This document shows, piece by piece, positions 2,251 to 64,000 of a stretch of DNA of 64,000 nt. The position numbers and the translations under genes were made by a program. Source of the DNA: Bugula neritina (lineage: Eukaryota; Bryozoa; Gymnolaemata; Cheilostomatida; Bugulidae); the NCBI GenBank assembly GCA_964035545.1, contig OZ037766.1:14559222-14623221 (forward strand), in the 5' to 3' direction. Within the stretch, counting starts at the first letter, position 1. Each line of letters begins with the position of its first letter. The notes below the pieces were generated by a model. It ran no database searches and was not told where the DNA came from. It saw only the letters and a program-made list of their open reading frames with translations.

Positions 2251-5200
2251 ATTCTGTCGTCAGGTATTTCAGTCTCTGCCGCCCATTCTTGAACTGCTCT
2301 TTCTTCTTCTCTTTGTGATGTTTCTGTTCTCTATACTAGGTAAGTAATTCTGTCTTTTATTATACCAGGTAGTCCGTAACTCTGTTATTTATTATACCAG
2401 GTACTAGGTAACTCTGTTATTTATTATACCAGGTACTAGGTAACTCTGTTATTTATTATACCAGGTACTAGGTAACTCTGTTATTTATTATACCAGGTAC
2501 TAGGTAACTGTTATTTATTATACCAGGTACTAGGTAACTCTGTTATTTATTATACCAGGTAGTAGGTAGCTCTGTCCTTTATTATACCAGGTAGTAGATA
2601 GCTCTGTCCTCTGTTATACCAGGCACTAGGTAAGTAACTCTGATAATAAAGAAACCAGCTCAAAATTGTTATAAAAGTACTGCTACTAGTTTTATTACTA
2701 CTAAACCAATTTCCAGCAAGTTTGTTGAGTCTCTGTTACTCTATAGACTTTATAGTCTATCAGTAGTATAATTTTGTGAATTGAGTTGCTGGAGTTTTGC
2801 TGGACAGGCACTTTGTGTATGTAAGCTTGCTAGTAGGTTGTTCAGCCACTAACACACTTGGTAGGCCTATATCTATTCTATGCTGATAGTTATCAGTGAT
2901 TACTCTCTGTGCGGTTGGCTTGGTTTAGATGTCATGTAATTAGACTATTGTGTTGAAGCATACTAGTCCCTATATCACCTTGTCATCTTACAATATACAA
3001 TAACATATCAAGTACAATTCGAAACAATTGCTGGGTCAAGGGTTGATTACAAGGGATCCAGCTATACTCTAATTACTATAATTAAAAGCTCTTCATTCAA
3101 AGCTCAGTTATAATACCCTGTGCTAGTTTGGTTAGTTTAACTGTGCTAGTTTAACATTGAAAGGCAATTTATGTAAAATACATTATCTGGTCTCCATATA
3201 TAAGTGGTTGTACTCATCATTTCCTATGTGAAAAATTTAAATATCCTTTGACAGGTTTTCCCTACTAAATGAGATATGAATTACTTTAGCTTGGTTCTTC
3301 AGGGGTGCACATACTGAAATGTCTATGGTATAATTTGTATGATCATCCCATAGTTGATCTACTGTGTAATTATTTATGTATATATGACTTGTTGGAATAA
3401 ATTATTTTATTTTTTGCAGGGTTTTATTTGTTCTCTTCCAATGACAACAGCATAGTGAGTATATGTAATATAATACAATCTTTCCCTTTTATTTCTAGTA
3501 CCTTTTTTTGTTACCAGTCTTCATGTAAGGCAGGGGTGGGCAATTTTTTGTTTTTCACTACACCTCTTTTAGATTGCTAGCTATTTTGCCAAAATAGACT
3601 CTTTTTAATGATATAAACTAACAATACATGTACTTATAGTCCAAGCACAGAAACCTCTTAAGTTGTGTAGACGAATCAGTAGTCACTCTCATTCAGTTCT
3701 ATGGCAAATTTGTCATTAAATATAAGGAGGATCTGTCTAGAGCAATCTTACTCTGGAGTCACAAATTATGCCTTTCACATCCTGTTTAAAACTAAAATTT
3801 TGAATAAATTTATTCTACTGCAATATGATGCAAACAAACTTGGCATTGGTCAGACCTGTATTGCACCTTATAAAGAAGACAGTATATTTATTTCATGGGT
3901 GCAATATACTCACTTAATAACTAATTCAGTGTTTTATCACCATTTTAATTTGATTGTTACAACTGTTTTGGCCCATCCATATTTAGTAGTAGATGTTTAC
4001 TTTATAGTACTTTGAGACACTTCCCAAGAGCTTCCTCAGTTTATTTGTGCTGCTAACGACAGCCAACTACCCGGATGTTATGATGCCAGCCTATGCTACG
4101 TCACACATCTCTGCTCTGTTCTTTATTGTCTACATCAGTATTGAACTCTACTTTTTTATGAATCTGGTGAGTAGATTATAATATAGAACTGAAGGCAAAT
4201 GGTTACTCAGTAATTAAAGGTTCGTTCAAGCTGCTGGTTATAAGCCAGTCTGAGAAACCAAAAGAAAGTTGAAGCAACATAGACAATATGCAAATGGAAA
4301 CTAAACATACTAATATGAACAGACAACTCTTGGTTTAGAAAAATAAATTTGAAGATTGGTTGAAATATGATAACAATATATGCATATGTCAACAAGGAGC
4401 ATAGAGATAAGAAGTATTTTTGACCTGATGAAAATATACTGTATAATTTTGTTTATTTAAACAAAATTTTTTAGGCATTTATGTTTTGTAAGCAGTCTGT
4501 AGTAGTGAGATGAACCAGTAATTTTCAAACCCTATTTGCCCGTTACCTTGTGGGACTTGTTATAGAGAGGGTCAAAATTTGATTGTTGACCCTGCCATTC
4601 AGATGTGTAAATACACACAACTGCCAACATGATGTTTCATAATATTGTTCTCACTTGAATGTTACTTTGCAGTTTCTAGCTGTGGTATACAATACATTCA
4701 CCTCACTAGAGAAGAGTAAGGTGAAGAAGCTGATGTTACATAGACGACATGCGTGTGAACATGCCTTTAGATTGTTGGTGAGCAAGAGGCACAGAAACTC
4801 AATCTCTCTCTGTAACTTTGCTGGTCTTATGAAGTTCTACCGCCCTAGAGCCAGTGAGTTATATCAGGTTATCACTACGGTGAAGTAAATACTGGTTATT
4901 TGTAGGAGTATACAATGTAGATGGCCATTATAGATACAGATAACTGATAAAACTGTACATATCAGCACAGCATGCAAGTAAACAGTCATATGACTACACA
5001 CGTTTGGTTTAGATAACCTGAACCCATAATGTAAACTAAACTACTGCAGTTTCATGTTGAGAAGTATGTATAGTTGTTATAGTAGACTTAGTGCCACCAT
5101 TCTGTCAATAGTTCTGTAGGTTAGGCTGGTAATTTGTGATGGTTTTACCGTATCTTAATATAAACTCAGACTACACTGGAGAAATAATTGTTACAGTTGT

Positions 5201-52277: not shown

Positions 52278-52381
52278 AGTAGTAGGAGGTGGATGGTCCT
52301 GGCTCACTCTTCTTCTACCGTCGAGTCTTCGACTCGCCAGTGTCAGAAGAGTGAGCCAGGACGCATCCACCTCCTACTACT
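52278..52381. repeat. 104-bp near-perfect hairpin at element end
   Basis: Arms 52278-52313 and 52345-52381 are complementary over 36 bp with one extra base in the right arm. The 31-bp loop contains its own small hairpin (cgagtc-ttc-gactcg). Likely part of the Polinton terminal repeat. Confidence 0.85.
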
Positions 52382-52383
52382 CT

Positions 52384-52740
52384 ATTAGTAATATTATAAA
52401 AAAAATAGTGTAATATTATAAAAAAGTAGTGTAATATTATAAATTTTATTTAAAAAAATTTTTTTAGGGTGGATGGTCCTGGCTCACAATACGATACTAT
52501 TAGTAAGATAATAAGAGCTTCGACTCGCCAGTGTCAGAAGAGCGATCCAGGACGCATCCACCTGCTACTATTCTATTAGTAATATTATAAAAAAGTAGTG
52601 TAATATTATAAAAAAGTAGTGTAATATTATAAATTTTATTTAGAAAAATATTTTTTTAAAAATAAGAAAAAAATATTTTTAGGGTGGATGGTTCTAGCTC
52701 ACAATACGATACTAATAGTAAGATAATAAATTATTATACG
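52384..52740. repeat. Reiterated terminal modules
   Basis: Blocks of the terminal hairpin recur: ggtggatggtcctggctcac at 52469, a second right-arm-like block (gtgtcagaagagcgatccag) at about 52530, and a diverged ggtggatggttctagctcac at about 52683. They are separated by AT-rich tracts built of gtaatattataaaaaa-type repeats. No coding capacity. Confidence 0.8.
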
Positions 52741-52763
52741 CTAAGAATATAATAATTTTGTGT

Positions 52764-52958
52764 TTAAACGTTATAACTTGGAAATGTTGGTAAAGATTCA
52801 GTAGATTCGGTTATACCTCCATCATTCGTTGATAAAACTAATTTATTACCAACTGCTCCTTGTAATTTAGGAATAGCGTAATTATTTATATTATTTATTG
52901 TAATAAGATCTGAAATATTTATACCCGTTTCTACAATATTACCATCACTCGAAAGCAT
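52764..52958 (-). CDS. Small Polinton ORF, 64 aa, unknown
   Basis: Not recognised. Polar and Asn/Thr/Ser-rich (LVLSTNDGGITESTE), with no signal peptide or membrane helix. It follows the 173-aa gene by 14 bp in the same direction and is the last frame before the element's terminal repeats. Unlike most genes here it lacks the TATATAAATG motif, so it may be translated from the upstream message or may not be a real gene. Confidence 0.5.
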   Translation of the reverse strand: MLSSDGNIVETGINISDLITINNINNYAIPKLQGAVGNKLVLSTNDGGITESTESLPTFPSYNV

Positions 52959-52972
52959 TAATAATAATTTTT

Positions 52973-53494
52973 TTAATTAGTTAAACTATTATAATAAAGT
53001 TTTAAATATACGTAATCAAAAGGTAGTGCATCAGTAGCGAATTCACTCGGTGTATTAACAAGAATTACGTCATTAGGTTTATAACTCGGATAATTACTCG
53101 AAAGAGCTATTGTAAACGAAAAATTATTATTAGCGTTAACGGTTTTATTAATATTTATTTTATTATACGGAACATTATGTTCGGCACCGCTAATAGTATA
53201 AAATATATTTTCTTTAGACTCGTCAAATGGATTTACGCTATTACGAATATGTAAACCTAATTTTTTATCAGTCCAATATAATTCTTTCGTTTTATTATTA
53301 GGTGAACTTTCGTTATAAAATTGTATTAACGCGTGCGTTATTTCTATAGATTTATTGACTAAATAATCATTAATTAAATCTACCGTAAAGCTATTAATAT
53401 CTTCGTAATAATAAAATTCGTGTTTAGGTATAATACTCGTAATATACGCTTTATTAGTCGTTATATTGACTTTACTAAATTTATAGATATTCAT
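52973..53494 (-). CDS. Polinton protein of unknown function, paralog 1
   Basis: 173 aa, clearly homologous to the 172-aa product next to it (53491-54009). Both share KELYWTDK(K/R)(L/I)GLHVRNS-like and GGEHN/GAEHN segments, YPS(Y/H)KP.DVIL, a terminal YVYLKLYYN-like strand and similar length. Predominantly beta by composition, without signal peptide or membrane helix. Its ATG overlaps the stop of the upstream paralog by four bases (ATGA at 53494-53491) and is preceded by TTATAA. Function unknown; a virion-surface or host-interaction role is speculation based on duplication and position. Confidence 0.8.
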   Translation of the reverse strand: MNIYKFSKVNITTNKAYITSIIPKHEFYYYEDINSFTVDLINDYLVNKSIEITHALIQFYNESSPNNKTKELYWTDKKLGLHIRNSVNPFDESKENIFYTISGAEHNVPYNKININKTVNANNNFSFTIALSSNYPSYKPNDVILVNTPSEFATDALPFDYVYLKLYYNSLTN

Positions 53495-54009
53495 TTATAA
53501 TTATAATAAAGTTTTATTAATACGTAATGAAAAGGTAACGCCGCAGTGGTTATTTCACTAGCGGGAGTATCGGTTAAAATTACGTCGCTAGGTTTATGAC
53601 TAGGATAAGTTTTTGATAATACCATTGTTAATTTAAAATTTTTATTAGCTTCAATAATTTTATTAGCGTTTATTTCGCTAAACGGAAGATTATGTTCGCC
53701 ACCGCTTATATCATAAAAAGTATTTTCATTGGCTCCACTGAATATTTCAGCGCTATTTCTAACGTGTAAGCCTATTCGCTTATCAGTCCAATAAAGTTCT
53801 TTAGTATTATGAGCTTGTTCACCGTAAAATTGTACTAATATATTCGTTATTTCAATCGGTTCATCGATTAAAAAATCTTTAACTAACGTAGCAATAAATC
53901 CTTCGGGATGATACGTAAATTCTGATGGAATTATGATCTTTGTAATATATGGTTTTTCATTTATTATAGTGGCTTTAGCCGAATTTCCAAAAATATAAAC
54001 TGAAGTCAT
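53491..54009 (-). CDS. Polinton protein of unknown function, paralog 2
   Basis: 172 aa, the upstream member of a tandem duplicated pair (see 52973-53494). Identity is concentrated in the middle (KELYWTDKRIGLHVRNS) and near the C terminus (YPSHKPSDVIL). The start is preceded by the exact motif TATATAAATG, whose TAA is the stop codon of the protease gene just upstream, so there is no spacer at all. No recognised domain. Confidence 0.8.
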   Translation of the reverse strand: MTSVYIFGNSAKATIINEKPYITKIIIPSEFTYHPEGFIATLVKDFLIDEPIEITNILVQFYGEQAHNTKELYWTDKRIGLHVRNSAEIFSGANENTFYDISGGEHNLPFSEINANKIIEANKNFKLTMVLSKTYPSHKPSDVILTDTPASEITTAALPFHYVLIKLYYNYK

Positions 54010-54012
54010 TTA
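54000..54012 (-). promoter_or_regulatory. TATATAAATG start motif (representative)
   Basis: TATATAAATG fused to the start codon. Exact copies precede the genes starting at 54009, 54423, 58081, 58426 (+ strand), 59383, 59973, 60744 and 63216; variants TATAATAAATG precede those at 62019 and 62400, and TTATAAATG that at 53494. Resembles late-promoter/initiator motifs of large cytoplasmic DNA viruses (TAAATG). The promoter function is inferred. Confidence 0.7.
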
Positions 54013-54423
54013 TATAAGTAATTTATTTATAATTAATTGAGGTGACTCGTGTTTAGACATTTCTTTAAGCCAATATAAACACAAGTGTCCGCATATAACG
54101 GTACCGAATTTTTGTACTCGTTCCGTGTTATAAAATATAGGTGGTTTTAAATATTTCATTATTTCTAGCGGTGGGTGAAGTCCAAAACTATCAAAATAAT
54201 ATTTTTTATTTCCGTTTTTATACCAAGCTACCCAATGAGTACCGTTACCCATTAAATCGTCTAAATTTAATATACCGCATTCTTTTTTACGCGGTTTATC
54301 GGGTAAATCGTTTCTTGAAAATACTCCTCTAAAAAATGGTATTTTTAACTTTTTAATCGTAAACTCTAATTCAATATTTGATAGAGCTTTATTCGGTAAT
54401 TTTATATTTTTTATTTTAATCAT
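54010..54423 (-). CDS. PRO: Adenovirus-type cysteine protease
   Basis: 137-aa Ulp1/adenain-like cysteine protease expected to cleave virion precursor proteins during particle maturation. Catalytic landmarks in order: His in NGTHWVAWY (about 62), Asp in YYFDSFGLHPP (about 78), and Cys in VICGHLCLYW (about 111). Adenovirus protease is about 200 aa, and Polinton versions are commonly shorter like this. The gene overlaps the end of the polymerase gene by 8 bp and carries TATATAAATG at its own start. Intact. Confidence 0.92.
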   Translation of the reverse strand: MIKIKNIKLPNKALSNIELEFTIKKLKIPFFRGVFSRNDLPDKPRKKECGILNLDDLMGNGTHWVAWYKNGNKKYYFDSFGLHPPLEIMKYLKPPIFYNTERVQKFGTVICGHLCLYWLKEMSKHESPQLIINKLLI

Positions 54424-57400
54424 TTATATAACCGTAAGGGACTGTAGTTATACCGTCTTCGAGTATATTTCTTTTATCATCTTCGGCCGACAGAGCTACT
54501 TTATTTATAGTTTCAGCGTACATCGTATGCTTATGACTTCTTAACACGTTCATCGTTCTAAATTGATTTCGTCGCGTTAATAAACACTCTTTATAATCAT
54601 CAAATGTTATGCGATTATCACGAGTTGTTTTATTAATACCCTTACATTTTTTTTCTTCTATATCATCCATCTTGTAAGAATATAATTTAGCTCTTAGGCC
54701 TACAAATTCTGTAATTTGTTTACCGCCGGCTTCATCCTTGAATTTTCCTATTACTTTTTTATTTTTACCGGTTGGTATACCCGATTTATGATTTTTTGGA
54801 TAATTACTCGTGTCAAATTTATTTTCGATATCCGGTAATATATCTTTATAAAAATCTTCAGTTTGCACGTGATACATTAAACTATCCGTATCCGTAAATA
54901 ATAATTGCGCTTTATTATTATATTTATGTTTAATATACTCGTAATGAAAGTCGTACATTAGAGTTTTACTAATGTCTAAAATTGCGGCTCCCAAATATAC
55001 GGGTTTATCAAACTTTAATTTAGTTACGTTCATATGAACGGCTATTAAATTTTCGGAAAATATAGTGAAGCTTTTAAAGTTTGGTTGATTAGTAAACTTT
55101 TTAGCTTCGCTTTCGCTAGTAACCAATTTAACGTTAACTCTATTACGAATATCTTCCATCGTTTTACCGAACACGGAATTATTCATTAGCTTAAAGAAAT
55201 CTTTTTCAAAATCGCTTCGAGCTAAAGTTCTTAGTTCGGTATTTAATTTTATATATTTTTTTAGCTTATTCGATTCATTAAAGGTTATACCTCTATGAAT
55301 TTTCGTTAATTTTAAGCCGTACATAAGGCATTGTTTTAACGCCTCGTAATGTATAATATAATTTTTTTTATTATTTAAGTTTGGCACTAACTTTTCTACT
55401 TTGTTAATCGTTAACCTTTCGGGGCAAAATGGATAATCTTTATGCGAGTCGTGTAACTCTTTAGAATATTCTAAGTCTACTTCCAAGAAGCTAGGCGGAA
55501 AATTTAAACTTTTTTCCAAGTTTTTACATCGCTTTTCAGTCATCCACTTAAAATTACCCGTAGGTAAATTTTTGGACATAGCCCAACCGTATAAATTATT
55601 AGCGTCTAAATAAGTAATATAACTGCTAGGTTCGCTAGCGTTATAATTTTCCATATACTTATTATTGGCTTTAGCGTGTCTATGACTGATCATACTTACA
55701 CCACCCCTAATAGCCTTTTCAAAGAAAAGTAGTTGGTTAACGTCGGTAATTGGATCCAACTTTAATTCGGTAGTTTTAAGCATAGCGTCCCAACTTAAAC
55801 CCGGGGCCGTATAGTACCAAGCGGGATCTAATTTGTAATATTTTAAACACACGTTTCTAAAGTTTTCAAAAACGTCGGCTAAATGTAATACATCAACTTT
55901 CATATACAAGTCGTGATATTCTTTAAACGTTTTCATATTAAATTCTCGCCAAACGTTTTGAGCGTGTATATAATCTTCTTCCGAAATATTTTGCTCGGTT
56001 AAGCTCGAATAAAACTTTTCTTTAGGTGGTAAAGACGTTTCATTCAACACGCTTAGATTATTAAAATAGTCATACGGAAATACTCCTTTTCTTAATACCA
56101 AGTCTAATTGTTTTTCCTTATAATATTCACCTAAGTGTTTAAAGTCGTCGCGTTTTAAATTCGCCACTAAACTCGCTAAATTAGAACTCATAAATTTATA
56201 CGAGTCTAAAAAGCGAATTTCACGGCTAACTTTAATTTTTTCACCTTCTTTATTGGTAAATTCGTCTACTAATAATTTTTTACTAAAAGATATATATTTT
56301 TCTTCGGTATTAGGTATACACGAAGGTTCACCACCTAAATTTTTAATAAATAAGTGGGCGTCATAACCCGATAAGTTGTGTATAAACACCGGATAAAATT
56401 TTGGAATTTTATAATTTAAATTACAATTTTTATGAGCCGCTCCTCTATAGTCTCCAGTCAAGTGGCAGTGATCTCTCACTCTGTCATTACTCAATTTTTC
56501 TTCGCATATATAACAATTTTCGGCTAATTCGAAAGACTTTTGCTCGTCAATCGTAATTCGCATAGTTTTAGCGAATTTATGTTTTTTATAAATATTTTTA
56601 ATGTCGAGTTCTAATAGTCTTATAAATTGTTCGCCAATATCTTCGTCTTCAGTTTCTTTAGTATAACTTCTATAATTACACTCGCCGGTAACGCTTACTA
56701 TATAATATCTGAAACCCGACGGTTCGTGTTGCTGATATTGGTTAGTATAACTTTCTTTAAAATTAGGATTACAGCCTTGTATAGGCTTTGTAAAACATTC
56801 AAAATCCGCGTATACCACAAACGGTACTCTCATACTACGACAATAATGACTAGATTGAAATTTTATTTTATCTTCTAATTTTGGAAATGTCGTAGTCACG
56901 CTATCATTTTTTAAGCACCAATCTTGATGCTTTTTTAATGATTCGTTAGATCGAAACGAATTCATACAATTTACGCAAATATGTTTAGCGTTAACGCGTT
57001 TATTTATTTGCGAACCGAGTAATTTATTTAAATTTTTAATATACGTATAATGATTTTTTTCGCCATCGGTTATATAAAGTAAATTTATAATTTTATTCTG
57101 ACCGCTAGTTTTTCTCCATAAATTTATCGTATTGCCGTTCCACATAAATACATTAATTCCTATTGAGGAATTAACTTTTTCGAAAGCGTCAATGGATTCT
57201 TTCGTAGCCGGAAATTCCACTCCTTCCCACGATAATTTATTAACGTGCTCTTTATAATTACTAATTCTTTCAACATTTTTATTAACCGGATAAACTCCCA
57301 TTAAAATGGCCCACATAAAGCATTTATCGTCTTTATTTTTAGGATTTATTACGGCCTTTTTCGTTTTAATTTCTTTCGGAAGATCAATCCACGATGATCC

Positions 57401-58081
57401 GTTAAGAGGTTGATATTTATTAATATTAATTTCCATTTTTTTAATGGAATTAAACGTCCAACTACTTCCTTTAGCGTTTAACGAAGCAAAATTTTCTTTT
57501 ATACGTTCAATTATTTCATTGTATATTTCATCAACATTCGTAGAAGATAATATAATTTCAACGTTTGATGTAAATGGCATAGTTTCTATAATAATTTCTC
57601 CGGTACTTATATTATGCTTTTTTACTTTGCAATATAAAAATATTTTAGCTTTTATAGTAGGTTTTAATAATTCTAGTACGTTTAGTTTTACTAGTTTACA
57701 AAACGAATTTATATCGTATCCGGGTAAACCTTTAATTTCATAAGTTTGAAACCAACCATTAGCGGCTTGTTCTTTAAGCTTAGGCTGATTATATAAAGCC
57801 ATAATTTTATCCTTAATCGGATTTACAATTTTTGCAATCGGCTTTACAATACCCTTAACCCATTTTTTTATATTACGCGTAGTTTGCGTAAATATTTCTC
57901 GCATAATTTTTTTCGCGGGTATAGGTATTAACGGGGCTTGTCCTATATTTGGAACGGGTTCGTCCATAGGCGATAATAGCCGTATAAGTTCGGCTTTTCT
58001 TAATCGAGAATATCGTTTCAATCCTCTTTCTTTAGCTAAAGCTTTTAAAGCTTTTACGGTAATTTTTGTATTGAACTCCAT
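54416..58081 (-). CDS. POLB: Protein-primed family B DNA polymerase
   Basis: 1221 aa replicative polymerase that copies the element from its termini using a protein primer. Order of features: SAP-like N-terminal helices (about 8-38, VKALKALAKERGLKRYS); a domain with KCFMWAILMGVYPV, common in Polinton polymerases; a C2H2-like finger (CVNCMNSF, about 365); exonuclease motif YADFECF (about 423); a CYICEEKL...DHCHLTG zinc cluster resembling endonuclease VII/HNH (about 521-545); exonuclease region YDAHLFI; polymerase motif A LDANNLYGWAM (about 820); motif B NNSVFGKT (about 965); motif C FTDTDSL (about 1060). All catalytic motifs are present. Start chosen at the ATG with the TATATAAATG motif. No frame break over 3.7 kb. 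Confidence 0.95.
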   Translation of the reverse strand: MEFNTKITVKALKALAKERGLKRYSRLRKAELIRLLSPMDEPVPNIGQAPLIPIPAKKIMREIFTQTTRNIKKWVKGIVKPIAKIVNPIKDKIMALYNQPKLKEQAANGWFQTYEIKGLPGYDINSFCKLVKLNVLELLKPTIKAKIFLYCKVKKHNISTGEIIIETMPFTSNVEIILSSTNVDEIYNEIIERIKENFASLNAKGSSWTFNSIKKMEININKYQPLNGSSWIDLPKEIKTKKAVINPKNKDDKCFMWAILMGVYPVNKNVERISNYKEHVNKLSWEGVEFPATKESIDAFEKVNSSIGINVFMWNGNTINLWRKTSGQNKIINLLYITDGEKNHYTYIKNLNKLLGSQINKRVNAKHICVNCMNSFRSNESLKKHQDWCLKNDSVTTTFPKLEDKIKFQSSHYCRSMRVPFVVYADFECFTKPIQGCNPNFKESYTNQYQQHEPSGFRYYIVSVTGECNYRSYTKETEDEDIGEQFIRLLELDIKNIYKKHKFAKTMRITIDEQKSFELAENCYICEEKLSNDRVRDHCHLTGDYRGAAHKNCNLNYKIPKFYPVFIHNLSGYDAHLFIKNLGGEPSCIPNTEEKYISFSKKLLVDEFTNKEGEKIKVSREIRFLDSYKFMSSNLASLVANLKRDDFKHLGEYYKEKQLDLVLRKGVFPYDYFNNLSVLNETSLPPKEKFYSSLTEQNISEEDYIHAQNVWREFNMKTFKEYHDLYMKVDVLHLADVFENFRNVCLKYYKLDPAWYYTAPGLSWDAMLKTTELKLDPITDVNQLLFFEKAIRGGVSMISHRHAKANNKYMENYNASEPSSYITYLDANNLYGWAMSKNLPTGNFKWMTEKRCKNLEKSLNFPPSFLEVDLEYSKELHDSHKDYPFCPERLTINKVEKLVPNLNNKKNYIIHYEALKQCLMYGLKLTKIHRGITFNESNKLKKYIKLNTELRTLARSDFEKDFFKLMNNSVFGKTMEDIRNRVNVKLVTSESEAKKFTNQPNFKSFTIFSENLIAVHMNVTKLKFDKPVYLGAAILDISKTLMYDFHYEYIKHKYNNKAQLLFTDTDSLMYHVQTEDFYKDILPDIENKFDTSNYPKNHKSGIPTGKNKKVIGKFKDEAGGKQITEFVGLRAKLYSYKMDDIEEKKCKGINKTTRDNRITFDDYKECLLTRRNQFRTMNVLRSHKHTMYAETINKVALSAEDDKRNILEDGITTVPYGYIND

Positions 58082-58164
58082 TTATATAGTAAAAAAATCT
58101 TTAAACTATAAAATCAATTTTTTAATATTATTACTTATGTAAAATAAGTAATAATACTGAGAAA

Positions 58165-58383
58165 CTAACGTTCTTCTTTTAGTTTATAAGCTTCGCGTTT
58201 TAAAATACTTTTTATATAAAAATATCTATCAATGTTAGGAATTTGTTTTCTCGTTCTAAAATTAATTTCTTTAAGAGATATATTACTAATTACCGGCATA
58301 TATAAATATTCGAGTAACGGCGTATATTTTTTTTGTTCCGATTGCGCGATTAATTTATCGAGTAATTCAACGGTAAGATCCAT
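58165..58383 (-). CDS. Small Polinton ORF, about 72-82 aa, unknown
   Basis: Charged, helical small protein (MDLTVELLDKLIAQSEQ...) with no recognised domain. An in-frame ATG at 58413 would add ten hydrophobic residues, but that stretch reads like AT-rich leader, so I prefer the ATG at 58383 (preceded by TTATAA). Divergent from the + strand gene starting at 58426. Lies between the polymerase gene and the membrane-protein gene. Confidence 0.6.
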   Translation of the reverse strand: MDLTVELLDKLIAQSEQKKYTPLLEYLYMPVISNISLKEINFRTRKQIPNIDRYFYIKSILKREAYKLKEER

Positions 58384-58425
58384 ATTATAAAATAATAAAA
58401 TAATAAAAATCATTTTTTTATATAA

Positions 58426-58905
58426 ATGGACTTTCGACGAGAAAAATTAGAACTCTTAAACGATGAAATTATTAAATTAGAAAACGAATACGAACAAAAA
58501 CTTAATCATTTTAATTGGTTATCGAAATCGTTAAAAATAATTTCGGGATTATGCGGTACAACGAATTTAATATGCGGCGTTATTATTACGGCGTTATTAA
58601 ACGCTAACGTTACTAAACAAACGTTATTACCATTATCTATAATAGTAAGTATAATGAGTGTAATTACTACTTCTATTTCTTCTCAAGATACTAAATTAAT
58701 TAAATCTACGTTAATGTATTTAGATATATATACCTTTATAAAAGATTCTAAATTAGAAATTAATTCTATGTTGTCGAAATTTTTAAGCGACGCTCATATA
58801 GACGAAGAAGAATACGACGCTATAACCGAAAAATATAAAGATATTAATAGCGTAATATCGGATAAAAAAAGCGATATAATAATCGCTCGTAACAACATTT
58901 GTTAA
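58426..58905 (+). CDS. Polinton membrane protein with two helices
   Basis: 159 aa, the only gene of the element on the + strand. N-terminal coiled-coil-like segment (REKLELLNDEIIKLENEYEQ), two hydrophobic helices (about 50-62 around IICGVIITALL and 72-87 around LSIIVSIMSVITT), then a charged helical C-terminal half. The start carries the exact TATATAAATG motif in + orientation, 42 bp from the preferred start of the divergent small gene. Role unknown. A two-helix membrane protein beside virion genes could act in membrane remodelling or entry, but that is speculation. Confidence 0.75.
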   Translation: MDFRREKLELLNDEIIKLENEYEQKLNHFNWLSKSLKIISGLCGTTNLICGVIITALLNANVTKQTLLPLSIIVSIMSVITTSISSQDTKLIKSTLMYLDIYTFIKDSKLEINSMLSKFLSDAHIDEEEYDAITEKYKDINSVISDKKSDIIIARNNIC

Positions 58906-58978
58906 TTACTTGCAAAATGCAATTAATTAAAAAAGGGAGTTCAATACAAAAATATTCGTTTATTTATATACGTTTTCT

Positions 58979-59383
58979 TTAACTATAATATAAAGCGTCA
59001 TTTCGTCTTTTTTCTATTTCGTCTTCGGCGTATTTTAGTTTAGTAAAGAATGACGGTATTCTAGCCACCGCGTAATTCATTAAACCTACGTTAAGTTCTT
59101 GAATTATTTCTTTAGTCTTGTAAATAGTTTTTATTTTTAATTTTCCATCATTTTCTTTATAAATAATTTCTTTTTTATTAGTATAAACGCGTTCTTCGAA
59201 CACTCCTCGTTCGTTAGACGGATTAGTCATTTCGTCTAATATATTAAATTTTTTATATATAATTATTTCTTTTAAATCACCGCTTTCATACATTTGTTTT
59301 TCGTATTCGGAAGTTTTATATATCGTTTCGGTAATTGGGGTGCCGTCGAGGCTTTTATAAGTAATTACTGTTGGTTCAACCAT
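58979..59383 (-). CDS. Polinton protein of unknown function, 134 aa
   Basis: Not recognised. Lysine- and isoleucine-rich with repeated YK(S/T)-type strands (ITETIYKTSEYE; LKIKTIYKTKEI), ending in a charged helix (DEIEKRRNDALYYS). The two halves look weakly alike, suggesting an internal duplication. The start carries TATATAAATG. Located next to the pVI-like gene in the capsid gene block. Confidence 0.7.
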   Translation of the reverse strand: MVEPTVITYKSLDGTPITETIYKTSEYEKQMYESGDLKEIIIYKKFNILDEMTNPSNERGVFEERVYTNKKEIIYKENDGKLKIKTIYKTKEIIQELNVGLMNYAVARIPSFFTKLKYAEDEIEKRRNDALYYS

Positions 59384-59403
59384 TTATATACTTATTCTTT
59401 AAA

Positions 59404-59973
59404 CTATAATAGCATGCTTAAAAGAGGAATGTTTTTAAACGGACTATTCGGACCTAAAATTAAACCTTCGCCTTTTATATAGCTAGAACCCTGTTTTAAA
59501 TATAAACCGTTACCTTTCATTAGATTAGACGACGCGACTGGTTTTAAAGTAATAGAACCGTTTGAATTTGGTTCTACGGAACATACGCATCCGCCTCTTT
59601 TCAAATAAAGACCTTTACCTTTAATAGCTCTTTCGACTCCGGCACTAGCGGCTCCGGAAAGTACACCCGGTATAATAGTTTTTAATAGCGTAGGTATTAC
59701 TCTCGTAGCTATACCCAATAGAGCTCCTAAAAATCCTCCGCTCATTGACGCGTTAGTTTTTACTAACGACGGAGACATTTCGAGCGTTATATTTTTTTTA
59801 TTCGCGTTTAACGCTTTTAAAATATTATCATTTTGCGTTTTCGTAACGACTAGTTTATCGTTTCCGCTTTCGAGAGGTAATTTAATAACGCAACCCTTAC
59901 CGCTTCTATAAGCGTTCATTATTTTTTGTTTTTGCGCCTGCGGCACATTTCCTATAATTTCGCAATAACCCAT
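59404..59973 (-). CDS. Putative membrane-active minor virion protein (pVI-like)
   Basis: 189 aa. Residues about 78-117 form a Gly/Ala-rich hydrophobic amphipathic segment (SGGFLGALLGIATRV). Three repeats follow: GKGLYLKRGG, GNGLYLKQGS and GEGLILGPNS, and the protein ends in NIPLLSMLL. This layout resembles minor core/membrane-lytic proteins encoded beside the penton gene in Polintons and adenovirus-like elements. The likely role is inside the capsid next to the vertex, with processing by the element's protease possible at Gly-rich sites (inference). TATATAAATG at the start. Assignment is by pattern, not a confident family match. Confidence 0.6.
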   Translation of the reverse strand: MGYCEIIGNVPQAQKQKIMNAYRSGKGCVIKLPLESGNDKLVVTKTQNDNILKALNANKKNITLEMSPSLVKTNASMSGGFLGALLGIATRVIPTLLKTIIPGVLSGAASAGVERAIKGKGLYLKRGGCVCSVEPNSNGSITLKPVASSNLMKGNGLYLKQGSSYIKGEGLILGPNSPFKNIPLLSMLL

Positions 59974-59985
59974 TTATATAATACA

Positions 59986-60744
59986 TTAAACTTCTCTTAA
60001 ATGAAATCTTATTGAAAGTTGTTCGCCGCTAAGATCTAATAAATTACCTTTTTGATCCGTTACCGTAACGGTTAACGTCTTAATATATTTAACGTGAACG
60101 GGTAAGTATATTAAATTATGAGGTTTTTCTATTATTTTATATCCAGGACTAACGCTCGGAAAAAATGAATAGATAACGGGTTTATAAGTACCATCGATAT
60201 AACTTCCGTTGATACAATCAACTTGTACGTGTATAGCGTTTATATTTAAAATATTTACTATGTTCGTAGCTTCGATATATGGTTGATTATATATCGCCGC
60301 GTCAAAACCTAAAACGTCTCTTAAAGAATCTTCAACGTTAAAATCTATTCGATAATTTGGTTTTAATTTAAGTATAATTCTAAAAGTTACTTTATTAGCT
60401 TGCAAAGTAATACCGTTTCTATTACCCCCCTCTTTTACTATTTCGTCTTGAATAGCTTCTTCTAGTTGATCTAATTCGTACACTCCGACTGGTAACGAAA
60501 CTAAATGCCACGTAGTACCACCGTCTTTAGACCATCTATAGGAATTTCTATCGGTACTAATGTTTGGAAAAGAATAAAACGTATCCAAACTAATAAGACA
60601 CATTTCGTATTTTTTATTTTTATTTAACTCTATAGGCGGATTAAGTTGAGTAATTATTCTCGTTTTAGTATCGGTAACTCCTATAGTCATCGTTTGTTTA
60701 GAGGCCGTATTATCGGCAATTTCTCTTAAAATTCTATTATCCAT
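59986..60744 (-). CDS. mCP: Penton-like minor capsid protein (single jelly roll)
   Basis: 252 aa, beta-rich. Landmarks: NKKYEMCLISLDTFYSFPNI in the first quarter, a VGVYELDQLEEAIQ helix, and a C-terminal LIYLPV...LTVTVTDQKGNLLDLSGE...IRFHL block, which is characteristic of the Polinton minor capsid protein that forms capsid vertices. Starts at TATATAAATG; the TAA in that motif is the stop codon of the major capsid gene, so the two frames abut without spacer, which suggests joint expression. Confidence 0.85.
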   Translation of the reverse strand: MDNRILREIADNTASKQTMTIGVTDTKTRIITQLNPPIELNKNKKYEMCLISLDTFYSFPNISTDRNSYRWSKDGGTTWHLVSLPVGVYELDQLEEAIQDEIVKEGGNRNGITLQANKVTFRIILKLKPNYRIDFNVEDSLRDVLGFDAAIYNQPYIEATNIVNILNINAIHVQVDCINGSYIDGTYKPVIYSFFPSVSPGYKIIEKPHNLIYLPVHVKYIKTLTVTVTDQKGNLLDLSGEQLSIRFHLREV

Positions 60745-62019
60745 TTATATAACTTTTAAATTATTTCCATCGGAACCGAGAGACATGGTTTTATCGGATA
60801 GAATTAACGCGTAAGCTTGAGTATCAGCCGGCACGTTTTGACTAAACTGAACTCTCAATTGAATATCGGCTACGCTATTCTTAAGAGCTTCGCTTTGCTT
60901 ACTAACGTCTATTACGAACAAAGCGTAAAGATCTTTATATTCCGAAGGTAATACGTTCGAATAAGCGATTAGTTCGTTTATACCGTAATATTCTCCGCAA
61001 AATTTAGAAGCGTCTCCGTAAACTCTACTAAACTTCATTTTAGCGAAATCTATATCGTAATCAACTTCGGGATACCGCTCACTGTTTAGCATCGCGTATA
61101 CGCTTTTAACGTTAACGTGATCGAATACGGCTGGATTAGTCGTTTGACTTTCATTCTTACCCGTTTGAAAACCTACAATAATATATTTAGGTTTTTCCGT
61201 ATCACCTCTAGAACCCAAACGCCACGTAAAGTTTGTAGTTTGCGGCACCGCGATACTATCACACCACCTAGACCTATAAATTATGGGTAGCTGCGTCTTA
61301 CTCTCTATAATTTTATAGAGTTTATTTTTCATTTCAAAACTAGGCGTTACGTGAGGCATCCACCACGACACTTTATCCAACGTTATTTTTCCCGCGTCTA
61401 CACCGTTTGCTCTAAATATAGCGTTATCGTTAGTATCGCGTACGAGAGTGAGTTGATGTTTTATACCGTACAAAACTTTTTCGTAATCGTCGGCGAACCC
61501 AAACAAATGTCTGAGATCCACTTTAATACTAAAAGTACCTTTAGGATCGGGCTTTTGTATAATATAAATTTGACGCGCGTTAAAACCTAAATTAGCGGCG
61601 GCAGCGGCTGCGGTAGTATCTTTTGACCACAACTGATTAAGACCTCTCGACTTGCCGTAGTCGTCGGGATAAGTTAGTAAACCCATCATAGTCGAAGCGT
61701 GTCCGGGATTATTTATATATTCCAAGTCGTGTCCGTCGAGTTGATATCTAACGCTTTTAAACAAATAAGCCATACCGTTATTCGTCAACGTTACTAAGTC
61801 AGCGTCGGCGTATGCGGTTCCATCGGCTTTAGTTAGACGACCTTCGATAATCAAATAACTTTTACTAGGCTGAACGTACAAATCTTGTTGATTAATAACT
61901 ATTCTAATTTCACCGGGATTATCCAAATTCGTTCCCGTTACGGGTTCGTATTCGTGCACTTGATCGCGTTCTACGCTCGTATCGAGTACAATTTTTTGTG
62001 TAATGTTCAGAGAGTCCAT
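60745..62019 (-). CDS. MCP: Major capsid protein, putative double jelly roll
   Basis: 424 aa, beta-rich, intact. Landmarks: a conserved N-terminal region with YLIIEGRLTK, YQLDGHDLEYINNPG, an HLFGFADDYEKVLYGIKHQL segment in the middle, and KPKYIIVGFQTGKNE in the second half. This fits the capsid protein carried next to the penton gene in Polinton-type elements. It is somewhat shorter than many Polinton major capsid proteins, so loops may be reduced. Start motif is the variant TATAATAAATG. It is more GC- and CpG-rich than the other genes of the element, as often seen for highly expressed genes (inference). Confidence 0.8.
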   Translation of the reverse strand: MDSLNITQKIVLDTSVERDQVHEYEPVTGTNLDNPGEIRIVINQQDLYVQPSKSYLIIEGRLTKADGTAYADADLVTLTNNGMAYLFKSVRYQLDGHDLEYINNPGHASTMMGLLTYPDDYGKSRGLNQLWSKDTTAAAAAANLGFNARQIYIIQKPDPKGTFSIKVDLRHLFGFADDYEKVLYGIKHQLTLVRDTNDNAIFRANGVDAGKITLDKVSWWMPHVTPSFEMKNKLYKIIESKTQLPIIYRSRWCDSIAVPQTTNFTWRLGSRGDTEKPKYIIVGFQTGKNESQTTNPAVFDHVNVKSVYAMLNSERYPEVDYDIDFAKMKFSRVYGDASKFCGEYYGINELIAYSNVLPSEYKDLYALFVIDVSKQSEALKNSVADIQLRVQFSQNVPADTQAYALILSDKTMSLGSDGNNLKVI

Positions 62020-62040
62020 TTATTATAGTAAAATAATTTC

Positions 62041-62400
62041 TTAATAAGCTATAGCTTGCCCGCTTCCTTCTAAAATATTGGCAATAGCGTTTTCTCCCTC
62101 GCTAAGCGATCTTAATATATTTTGCCTTTGAATATCATTAAGAGGTTGACTAAGACTTTTTAATATTTTTTGTCGTTTAGTATCATTAAGAGGTACTCGA
62201 TTTAATCTTTTCTTTCGATTTTTTATCGCGTTAACAATTTTTTCACCGGCCGCGGTACCCGCTTTGGCTATAGCCTTTTTACCTAATTCTCTTACGCTGG
62301 AATTACTAGCTAATTTAGTTACTACATTTTTAATGGTGTCGAATATTCCACCACCGGCGTAGTGTCTTTGTAATCGTTGTCTTTTATCGTAAACGTACAT
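62041..62400 (-). CDS. Small basic virion-type protein
   Basis: 119 aa, strongly basic (KNRKKRLNR) with a glycine-led amphipathic helix GGGIFDTIKNVVTKLA and alanine-rich AKAGTAAGEKI. Contains an internal repeat: VPLNDTKRQKILKSLS is followed by QPLNDIQRQNILRSLS. Composition fits a DNA-condensing or membrane-interacting minor core protein like the small basic proteins of adenovirus-like elements, but no certain family match. Start motif TATAATAAATG, 3 bp after the upstream gene. Confidence 0.6.
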   Translation of the reverse strand: MYVYDKRQRLQRHYAGGGIFDTIKNVVTKLASNSSVRELGKKAIAKAGTAAGEKIVNAIKNRKKRLNRVPLNDTKRQKILKSLSQPLNDIQRQNILRSLSEGENAIANILEGSGQAIAY

Positions 62401-62403
62401 TTA

Positions 62404-63216
62404 TTATAGACGTAAAAGAATGTTTTCGTATTGGTTACGAGTAATTTCTTTCATTCTAAGTAATTCGTCTAATATAGCTACAATTTCGTTTCGTACTCCT
62501 GTATTTCCGGCTTTAGCGCTAGAAATTAAAAGTTGAAGTCGTTCTACTAAAGCGTCAGGATCCGACGATAAATATACTACTCCCTCACCCCTTTTAGCTT
62601 TTTTACTATCGGCGAGTTTCGCTCTCCGAGGATATAATTGCTCCCAAATAGGTCTAACAATACGTTTCCATTTATCACTATTTTTATCTACGGGACCGCG
62701 TTTACTTTGATATATAGCCCCGCTATTATCGAGTATACTTTTATAATTTTCATAATCATCGTCATTATATCCTACAGGCGTTTTACGCGTTAAAAGACTT
62801 AAAAGTCCTCTAGTTGCCAAATATTCTTTACCATCAAAAATTATTTTACCATCGTTAAAATTTATAGGCTTAGTACCTATAACGTGTCTATTACCATCCC
62901 ACTTTACGTTATAAGCTCCGGGTTCTAAGCCGGCTAAAGCGTTTTGAGTATATTCGTCTAAATTTATAACTCCATCCGTTATCGCTTGCAAAGGAGTATA
63001 GTTTTGTACGACTGAATTTTGCAGCTGTTTTAACGCTTCAGTCGTTTGAGCTTGAGAAGCGATTACGGGTTCAAAATATTTTTCTTGAGCTATTACGGCA
63101 TTTAATTCTCGCTCGCGTTCTCGTTTAAAATTCTCTTTTATTCTATTCTTTCGAGAAATAAAATCTTGTACGATTTTATCTCTTTTTATAGGATCGTGAA
63201 TCTTTAAGTAACTCAT
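62404..63216 (-). CDS. Conserved Polinton-type protein of unknown function
   Basis: 270 aa. N-terminal charged coiled-coil (RIKENFKRERERELNAV), central segment with WDGNRHVIGTKPINF, IIFDGKEYLATRGLLSLLTR and a KWKRIVRPIWEQLYPRR-type motif, then a helical C-terminal part. The central pattern (G-x-K-P/I...DGK-Y-GT-GL-LLT) recurs in proteins of invertebrate Polinton-like elements, but I know no function. It sits first in the capsid gene block, with TATATAAATG at its start. Could be a virion assembly or structural protein. Confidence 0.75.
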   Translation of the reverse strand: MSYLKIHDPIKRDKIVQDFISRKNRIKENFKRERERELNAVIAQEKYFEPVIASQAQTTEALKQLQNSVVQNYTPLQAITDGVINLDEYTQNALAGLEPGAYNVKWDGNRHVIGTKPINFNDGKIIFDGKEYLATRGLLSLLTRKTPVGYNDDDYENYKSILDNSGAIYQSKRGPVDKNSDKWKRIVRPIWEQLYPRRAKLADSKKAKRGEGVVYLSSDPDALVERLQLLISSAKAGNTGVRNEIVAILDELLRMKEITRNQYENILLRL

Positions 63217-63234
63217 TTATATAAACACAAATTT

Positions 63235-63325
63235 GTGTCTACATTTGTGTCCACTGGACACAATTTGTGTCTACTTTTGTGTCCACTGGACACAATTTGT
63301 GTCCACTTTTGTGTCTAGTGTCCAC
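63235..63325. repeat. 32-bp tandem repeats with palindromic core
   Basis: Two full 32-bp units (63235-63266 and 63267-63298) plus a partial third, each built of gtgtctac, ttttgtgtcc and the palindrome tgtccactggaca. Located in the only sizeable non-coding gap of the right half, between the integrase and the 270-aa gene. Candidate control or protein-binding region. Confidence 0.9.
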
Positions 63326-64000
63326 TATAATCGTTCTAAAACGTTTAAATTTACCCAAGAGTTTTGAGAATCGGGATAACCCAACCATTTTACTAAAGCC
63401 TTTTTACCTTTCTTTTTAATTACGCGCTCTATTCTATAAATTTCTTGACTCGTCTTTTGTAATTCCTGTTCGTAAAAGGTTCCTTGAATTTCTTCTCCTC
63501 CCGAGTCGGTTAATTTATAAGTAGTCGGATTAGTATATAATATTTTACTTATAGTAAACACTTCCTCCGTCCATCTAACGGTATAACCTTTTTCAAACGT
63601 TCGTTTTTTACGAGGTATACGCACTCTATCACCTATAGTAAATTTAGGTTTAGAAGGCGCTGGTAAGTTTGGATATAATTTTACGCGTACTTTATTTTCA
63701 TTAGAAGGATTACTAGCTTCAATCGGTGTCATTCCAATAGACGAATGTTTAGTCTCGTTATACCGTTTTACTAAATCTTTTAGTACGTCTATATATTTAT
63801 AAGTATTATTCGCCGAAAAATATTTAAACATTCGCTCTTTCATTGTTCTATTCCACCTCTCTACTACGCTAGACTTTTCTTCATTTTCCGTAGAATATAA
63901 TTCTATTAAGGACTTTACGTCTTTATTATAAAACTCTTTTCCCTTGTCAACCCATAAACGTTGCGGCTTACGATGAGTAAAAATAGTTTTTAAAGCTAAA
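63325..64000 (-). CDS. INT: Retroviral-type integrase with chromodomain, 5' cut off
   Basis: Coding continues without a stop from the window edge (64000) to the stop at 63325, about 224 residues visible. Integrase core motifs: second catalytic Asp in LWVDKGKEF and the catalytic Glu in STENEEKSSVVERWNRT; the first Asp and the zinc-binding N terminus lie beyond the window. After the core come an SH3-like segment (FTIGDRVRIPRKKRTFEKG) and a C-terminal chromodomain (YRIERVIKKKGKKALVKWL). The enzyme inserts the element's DNA, and the chromodomain may steer insertion to marked chromatin. An internal ATG at 63843 is not the true start. Confidence 0.93.
   Translation of the reverse strand, partial: LALKTIFTHRKPQRLWVDKGKEFYNKDVKSLIELYSTENEEKSSVVERWNRTMKERMFKYFSANNTYKYIDVLKDLVKRYNETKHSSIGMTPIEASNPSNENKVRVKLYPNLPAPSKPKFTIGDRVRIPRKKRTFEKGYTVRWTEEVFTISKILYTNPTTYKLTDSGGEEIQGTFYEQELQKTSQEIYRIERVIKKKGKKALVKWLGYPDSQNSWVNLNVLERL

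What the first reader, a model, noticed from the sequence alone, without database searches (positions are those of the whole stretch)
53490..63220. TATATAAATG motif fused to the ATG of nearly every Polinton gene
Eight gene starts have exactly TATATAAATG and three have close variants, including the only + strand gene, where the motif is on the + strand. A TATA box directly on the start codon cannot act as a normal box at -30 for that ATG. The pattern recalls TAAATG late promoters of poxviruses and the borrowed late promoters of virophages. This raises the idea that the element is, or was, transcribed by the machinery of a large cytoplasmic DNA virus.
Basis: partly seen in the sequence, partly recalled or inferred. 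Interest (0 to 1): 0.86.

Follow-up and report, generated by a model that had tools for sequence, protein, structure and literature searches.

The report
Poxvirus-style start signals in a Polinton
A recently active virus-like element in an animal-like genome carries the same short TATATAA-type signal fused to the start codon of almost every gene, an arrangement seen in late genes of poxviruses and their kin, which suggests that a large DNA virus may have supplied the enzyme that reads the element's genes.

Summary
All 8 TATATAAATG copies in the window are starts of one Polinton's ORFs. With three genes beyond the window edge, 14 of 15 ORF starts carry TAAATG preceded by TATA-, TTA- or TAA-type sequence; of 2362 other ATGs in the window none follows TATATAA. 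Other copies in the genome keep it at 47 of 52 mapped starts. In near-identical copies it changes about sevenfold less than its flanks. One palindrome serves both starts of the divergent integrase/ATPase pair: 32 genomic sites, 0 in the control. A second Polinton clade in the same genome has it at 0 of 17 ORF starts, so it is neither general to Polintons nor imposed by the host.

Best reading: a start-codon-fused transcription initiator, like poxvirus TAAATG and asfarvirus TATATA late promoters, read by a polymerase from outside the element, most likely that of a helper large DNA virus. Initiator function is likely; the helper is inferred and no candidate was found. RNA 5' ends were not testable. 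My literature searches showed no report of such a motif in Polintons.

The parts
52278..52965 (.). left terminal inverted repeat; begins AGTAGT, flanked by TATAAA target-site duplication (right copy in L039, ends at 3448)
   Evidence: 99.1% over 689 bp with the right TIR; 6-bp TSD TATAAA read from the flanks
53492..53500 (-). start element variant TTATAAATG of ORF 52973-53494
54007..54016 (-). TATATAAATG at start of ORF 53491-54009; its TAA is also the stop codon of the protease-like gene
54421..54430 (-). TATATAAATG at start of protease-like gene 54010-54423
   Evidence: weak Peptidase_C5 match below cut-off
58079..58088 (-). TATATAAATG at start of the pPolB-like gene 54416-58081
58098..58110 (-). 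upstream element TATAGTTTAAAGA, 16 bp before the ATG of the pPolB-like gene
   Evidence: box plus motif 13 sites in the genome vs 0 in the reversed control
58386..58413 (-). ORF 58165-58413: first ATG at 58413 lacks the motif; second in-frame ATG at 58386 is preceded by TATAAT
58419..58428 (+). TATATAAATG at start of the + strand gene 58426-58905; 12 bp from the divergent ATG at 58413
59381..59390 (-). TATATAAATG at start of ORF 58979-59383
59396..59408 (-). upstream element TATAGTTTAAAGA, 12 bp before the ATG of ORF 58979-59383
59971..59980 (-). TATATAAATG at start of ORF 59404-59973
60742..60751 (-). TATATAAATG at start of penton-like gene 59986-60744; its TAA is the MCP stop codon
   Evidence: the name penton is from position and recall, no convincing family match
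62017..62027 (-). variant TATAATAAATG at start of MCP gene 60745-62019
   Evidence: DJR-like domain 2.6e-57
62398..62408 (-). variant TATAATAAATG at start of ORF 62041-62400
63214..63223 (-). TATATAAATG at start of ORF 62404-63216
63325..64000 (-). 3' part of integrase gene (full gene L039:47-1411-, PLA2-like + rve + chromo); its start TATAATAAATG shares an 18-bp palindrome with the ATPase start outside the window

Best explanation
TATATAA/TATAATAA fused to the ATG is the transcription initiator of nearly every gene of this Polinton clade. It works like the TAAAT(G) late promoters of poxviruses and the TATATA initiation-site promoters of asfarviruses: RNA starts within or next to the motif, so mRNAs have almost no leader. 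A subset (pPolB-like gene, ORF 58979-59383, an accessory gene of other copies) has an extra upstream box, TATAGTTTAAAGA, 12-17 bp before the ATG, perhaps marking a different temporal class. No ORF of the element matches an RNA polymerase family, so the enzyme and its initiation factors come from elsewhere, most likely a co-infecting large DNA virus of the NCLDV type, which would make the element virophage-like. Shown: motif, position, conservation, clade restriction, upstream box. Inferred: that it is an initiator; that the enzyme is viral; timing.
For: 14 of 15 starts carry TAAATG and 8 of 15 TATATAAATG. In eight other copies 47 of 52 mapped starts keep it (motif-bearing rows 33-94% aa identity), including 6 where the ATG itself has decayed. 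Motif substitutions 4/595 vs 524/11576 in flanks, p=1e-7. Two divergent gene pairs have ATGs only 12 bp apart; the INT/ATPase pair shares the perfect palindrome CATTTATTATAATAAATG (pattern: 32 genomic sites, 0 for the reversed control). A different gene in the accessory slot of L047 has its own TTTTTTTATATATAAATG. Start authenticity: 118 of 120 ATPase homologues have no N-terminal offset, and 79 of 120 MCP homologues have none, 115 within 3 residues (best 120 listed of 1474 and 3385), so this TATA cannot sit 30 bp before the mRNA start. The -3 base is T in 14 of 15 starts, against the animal Kozak preference (recalled). A second Polinton clade in the same genome: 0 of 17 ORF starts, Fisher p=3e-8. 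Poxvirus late promoters have TAAAT followed by G overlapping the start codon, with AT-rich, T-preferring upstream sequence (PMC11980589, PMC3061580, passages); ASFV late promoters need TATATA at -1 to +5 (PMC5294985, passages), late 5' UTR median 9 nt (PMC7163114, passages).
Against: No transcript data. No NCLDV capsid or VLTF3 match in the genome, though neither search had a ringing control. The upstream T features of pox late promoters are only partly present. AATAAA in coding strands (53 in 12.7 kb) is not depleted, but neither clearly is it in the second clade: 9 observed against 14.9 (order-1) or 9.4 (maximal order) expected; the difference between clades gives p=0.10. Motif conservation across copies of one lineage is not independent evidence copy by copy. 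The element sits in a nuclear genome and its integrase has a chromodomain match, so some genes must act in a nucleus.
Confidence: 0.5

Rival explanations
1. Host RNA polymerase II reads the motif in an unusual way (a start-site TATA/Inr giving ultra-short leaders), perhaps with an element-encoded factor; no helper virus is needed.
For: Copies are numerous, nuclear and often open (penton gene: the window copy and 22 others full length without stops at 93-99% identity, among 46 matches). TATATAA resembles a TBP site (recalled). Seven of 15 ORFs have no Pfam match and could encode a factor.
Against: The other Polinton clade in the same nucleus does without the motif. Canonical TATA geometry does not fit, since the ATG appears to be the real start.
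Confidence: 0.25
2. A translational signal: compact stop-start junctions (TAAATG) for reinitiation, or a ribosome-context preference.
For: At four junctions the motif's TAA is, or directly follows, the stop codon of the preceding gene (54010, 60745, 62404, ATPase/fibre).
Against: The motif is equally present where no gene ends close upstream: the INT/ATPase and 58426 divergent starts, pPolB (83-nt gap), 63216 (108-nt gap). Stop-start coupling does not require the TATA part. T at -3 is unfavourable in animals (recalled). The second clade lacks the motif.
Confidence: 0.1
3. Polyadenylation signal of the preceding gene (AATAAA/TATAAA) that happens to abut the next ATG.
For: TATAATAAATG contains AATAAA and TATATAAATG contains TATAAA. 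Of the gene ends without a gene start right after, the convergent pair 58905/58979 does have ATTAAA or AATAAA within about 25 nt.
Against: Present at divergent starts, where nothing ends upstream. Spacing to the ATG is fixed at zero, which a poly(A) signal does not need. The ends of ORF 52973 and of the fibre gene have none within 70 and 90 nt. AATAAA is scattered through the genes at about the expected rate.
Confidence: 0.05
4. The RNA polymerase is supplied by another endogenous or cytoplasmic element of the host (as in linear cytoplasmic plasmids with their own polymerase) rather than by a giant virus.
For: Yeast linear plasmids, which share protein-primed PolB, encode their own RNA polymerase (recalled, not from a call).
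Against: No such element was looked for here; animals are not known to carry them (recalled).
Confidence: 0.1

Closest known systems
Poxvirus late promoters (TAAAT/G at the start codon; Rosel et al. 1986 seen only as cited in PMC3061580; PMC11980589 passages)
   Same: TAAATG fused to the start codon of most genes; AT-rich upstream sequence with T preference at some genes; works where ATGs abut neighbouring genes
   Different: Here a TATA-type block is part of the motif and the genome is a 14.4 kb Polinton with no recognised RNA polymerase; poly(A) leaders untested
Asfarvirus-group late promoters (TATATA at the initiation site; PMC5294985, PMC7163114, PMC11788076, passages)
   Same: TATATA at or next to the gene start, very short leader implied
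   Different: In the asfarvirus passages the motif is placed by the RNA start, not locked to the ATG; no asfarvirus is known to me from this host, which is unnamed
Virophages, EMALEs and transpovirons with promoters of their giant virus (mavirus TCTA, PMC8547959; PMC11464507, PMC11788076; passages)
   Same: Small element lacking its own RNA polymerase and carrying a uniform promoter-like motif at its genes
   Different: Different motif, animal-like host, no helper virus identified
Polinton/Maverick (PMC8097293, passages)
   Same: (AGT)2...(ACT)2 ends, 6-bp TSD, TIRs, integrase, DJR capsid, A32-type ATPase, pPolB-like and protease-like genes
   Different: No start-codon motif mentioned in the passages seen, and a second clade in this genome lacks it

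Membership tests
Polinton/Maverick | TIRs, (AGT)n ends, 6-bp target-site duplication | tested here: met
   TIR 99.1%, ends AGTAGT/ACTACT, TSD TATAAA
Polinton/Maverick | retroviral-type integrase, DJR major capsid protein, A32-type ATPase | tested here: met
   rve 6.2e-9, DJR-like 2.6e-57, Pox_A32 2.3e-8
Polinton/Maverick | protein-primed PolB and adenain-type protease | tested here: inconclusive
   Peptidase_C5 17.8 bits, below its cut-off. PolB named from DTDS-type motifs in the translation (recalled); Pfam, PHROGs and PDB searches gave no DNA polymerase match
Poxvirus-type late promoter | TAAATG at the translation start | tested here: met
   14 of 15 starts
Poxvirus-type late promoter | upstream T-run / T at the 10th nt before TAAAT | tested here: inconclusive
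   T in 8 of 14 at -13 and 10 of 14 at -11; T-run at some genes
Poxvirus-type late promoter | RNA 5' end in the motif, poly(A) leader, viral polymerase | not testable with these tools
   no RNA data
Asfarvirus-type late promoter | TATATA at the initiation site | tested here: inconclusive
   TATATAA next to 8 of 15 ATGs; initiation site unknown
Canonical Pol II TATA promoter | TATA about 30 bp before the RNA start of the gene | tested here: not met
   the motif abuts an ATG that homologues share as start; RNA start itself not measured
Virophage (giant-virus-dependent) | promoter motif shared with an identified giant virus | tested here: inconclusive
   none found in 120 IMG/VR stretches or by two family searches of the genome with empty controls

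The most novel reading that the evidence does not exclude
One clade of animal Polintons is a virophage-like satellite transcribed by the polymerase of a large DNA virus of that animal, while a second Polinton clade in the same nucleus uses host transcription: two kinds of Polinton, separated by their promoters, with the motif serving as a fingerprint of an unknown helper virus.
Probability: 0.4. Interest if true: 0.92.

Novelty: new variant of a known kind. Interest (0 to 1): 0.78.

Why it matters
How Polintons are expressed, and whether animal Polintons depend on giant viruses as virophages do, is to my knowledge open; a passage of PMC8097293 only suggests that giant viruses such as iridoviruses might activate them. 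A uniform, conserved initiator-like motif at almost every gene, absent from a second clade in the same nucleus, gives a sequence signature that can be searched for in animal-infecting large DNA viruses and a direct RNA 5'-end test.

Tried and rejected
AT-richness or chance: rejected by simulation and background ATGs. General Polinton feature: rejected by the second clade. Kozak context: -3 is T in 14 of 15. The second clade was purine at -3 in 8/9 (L067) and 9/11 (L068, a close sister) but only 3/8 in L189 and 2/4 in L190, so I do not rest on that contrast. Poly(A) signal and stop-start coupling: see rivals. SL trans-splicing: no AG acceptor just before the ATGs (read by eye; no separate test).

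Led nowhere: six viral contigs protein scans (MCP alone and as alignment, pPolB, ATPase alone and as alignment, integrase) and one genome-contig scan (MCP alignment) found no relatives. The palindrome matched 19 IMG/VR stretches; none matched the element's proteins by tblastn and in none did both ATGs open an ORF of 60 aa or more (one side, 192 aa, in one). NCLDV capsid and VLTF3 family searches were empty with empty controls. Host not identified. AATAAA: motif clade 53 observed vs 47 (order-1) or 55 (maximal order) expected; second clade 9 vs 15 or 9; not significant. T5NT: 4 on the sense strand, no calibrated test. L190 has only an ATPase match; its 4 ORF starts lack the motif and are not in the count of 17. 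The exact motif as a literature search string gave 33 papers, 20 listed, none on Polintons by title.
Full report
OBSERVATION. The window holds the left 11.7 kb of a 14.4 kb Polinton (window 52278 to L039:3448; TIR 99.1%, ends AGTAGT/ACTACT, TSD TATAAA). TATATAAATG occurs 8 times in 64 kb and all 8 are Polinton ORF starts. With the three genes beyond the window edge, 14 of 15 ORF starts have TAAATG: 8 the full 10-mer, 1 with TTATAA, 5 with TAATAA. The exception is the small ORF 58165-58413, whose second in-frame ATG is preceded by TATAAT. Of 2362 other ATGs in the window, 0 are preceded by TATATAA and 64 by TAA.

CONSERVATION. The genome (G000, 216 Mb, unnamed) has 46 penton matches; 23, the window copy included, are full length and open at 93-100% identity. 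I fetched eight further regions, L040-L047, divergent, partial or (L047) close copies, and mapped gene starts by tblastn. Of 52 starts whose alignment begins at residue 1-7, 33 have TAAATG exactly at the aligned start, 41 have it within -20..+6, and 47 have that or TAA before a decayed ATG. The 5 misses are the four g58165 rows and one integrase row extrapolated from residue 5; the palindrome at that integrase start is nevertheless intact in the genome (C1:32854518). L043 and L044 look like close relatives, so rows are not all independent. In L009-L038 (26-30 usable rows per site, three genes) the motif has 4 mismatches in 595 positions against 524 in 11576 flanking positions (-60..-11 and +4..+90; the three bases -10..-8, with 5 of 255, and the ATG itself were left out of that test). 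Among those rows L009 is the window copy, L037 and L038 are one copy, and L031 and L036 recur in L047 and L046. TATATAA and TATAATAA replace each other at the same gene between copies, so they look equivalent.

ARCHITECTURE. Genes in the window part are separated by -8 to 108 bp. Two divergent pairs have ATGs 12 bp apart. For INT/ATPase the whole spacer plus both ATGs is the palindrome CATTTATTATAATAAATG; the pattern CATTTAYTATARTAAATG has 32 genomic sites and none for the reversed control. At four junctions the motif's TAA is, or directly follows, the stop codon of the gene before. An upstream box TATAGTTTAAAGA lies 12-17 bp before the ATG of the pPolB-like gene, of ORF 58979-59383 or the gene in its place, and of an accessory gene in other copies; in the window's element the two hits with up to 2 mismatches are both perfect and both sit before the motif, while simulated sequences give 2.7 hits, 0.03 of them with TAAATG following. 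L041, L042, L045 and L046 show no such box before TAAATG. Box plus motif occurs 13 times in the genome against 0 in the reversed control; two are the window's own and the other 11 lie within about 3 kb of penton hits (my reading of the coordinates).

CONTROL CLADE. The ATPase search showed a second Polinton clade in the same genome at 25-33% ATPase identity. L067 has PolB-, INT-, ATPase- and MCP-related stretches; L189 PolB-, INT-, ATPase- and protease-related ones. L067 has 0 of 9 and L189 0 of 8 ORF starts (100 aa or more, first ATG, not otherwise verified) with TAA before ATG; L068, a close sister of L067, has 0 of 11. GC is 0.34-0.35. Its ATPase best matches adenovirus IVa2 (8.6e-5), that of the motif clade Pox_A32 (2.3e-8). 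So the motif belongs to one lineage and is not imposed by the host.

MECHANISM. The ATG looks authentic: among the best 120 homologues each, 118 ATPases and 79 MCPs align without N-terminal offset, and 115 MCPs lie within 3 residues. The TATA therefore does not fit a -30 box for its own mRNA. The geometry matches start-site promoters of NCLDV polymerases: vaccinia late TAAAT with G overlapping the start codon (PMC11980589, passages; TAAATG in an entomopoxvirus, PMC3061580, passages), and ASFV late TATATA at -1 to +5 with 9-nt median late leaders (PMC5294985 and PMC7163114, passages). None of the 15 ORFs matches an RNA polymerase in Pfam, so the enzyme presumably comes from outside. Virophages and transpovirons offer the precedent of using a giant virus's promoters (PMC8547959, PMC11788076, PMC11464507, passages). 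I give 0.5 to a helper large-DNA-virus polymerase, 0.25 to unconventional Pol II use, 0.1 to another polymerase and 0.15 to non-promoter readings.

LIMITS. No RNA data; no cross-species DNA (seven protein-guided scans empty); no helper found; host not identified (kinase- and EGF-like exons in the window suggest an animal, my reading). AATAAA density differs between the clades' genes, 53 in 12.7 kb against 9 in 9.0 kb, but not significantly once composition is allowed for.

LITERATURE. Nothing on start-codon motifs in Polintons showed in the listings of searches (20 of 145 papers listed; 20 of 33 listed). In PMC11071308 and PMC12220804 the word 'promoter' does not occur in the main text held. 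In PMC8097293 it occurs twice, and the passage shown concerns a host gene. The adintovirus paper (PMC8502044) and the ASFV late promoter paper (PMC112352) were not held, so print outside this library remains unchecked.

Noticed in passing
L039:47-1411 (-), 3' part in window 63325-64000: The integrase carries an N-terminal parvovirus-type phospholipase A2 domain (PF08398, 1.3e-8) before rve and chromo domains. By coordinates 33 of 34 such domains in the genome lie beside ATPase hits of the motif clade (exception C3:8848069) and none beside the second clade; an entry-type enzyme fused to an integrase hints at a real virion.
   Followed up: partly
window 58098-58110 and 59396-59408: Upstream box TATAGTTTAAAGA shared by the pPolB-like gene, ORF 58979-59383 and an accessory gene in other copies; perhaps a separate temporal class.
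   Followed up: partly
window 54416-58081: The pPolB-like gene product has an N-terminal Rho_N-like domain and an endonuclease VII-like stretch at about 503-555.
   Followed up: no
window 58165-58413; L040 3050-3420; L047 2930-3260: The accessory slot beside pPolB holds different small genes in different copies; in L047 and L040 a TATATAAATG stands at the slot gene's start, though the frame behind it in L040 is broken.
   Followed up: partly
window 52966-63999 and L039, coding strands: AATAAA is four times as dense (4.2 per kb) as in the second clade's genes (1.0 per kb) at similar base composition; the difference is not significant against expectation.
   Followed up: partly
flanks of 52278 and L039:3448: The target-site duplication itself is TATAAA; whether the integrase prefers TATA-like targets was not examined in other copies.
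   Followed up: no
window 52973-53494 and 53491-54009: Two adjacent, similar-looking ORFs of 173 and 172 aa without a Pfam match, perhaps paralogues.
   Followed up: no
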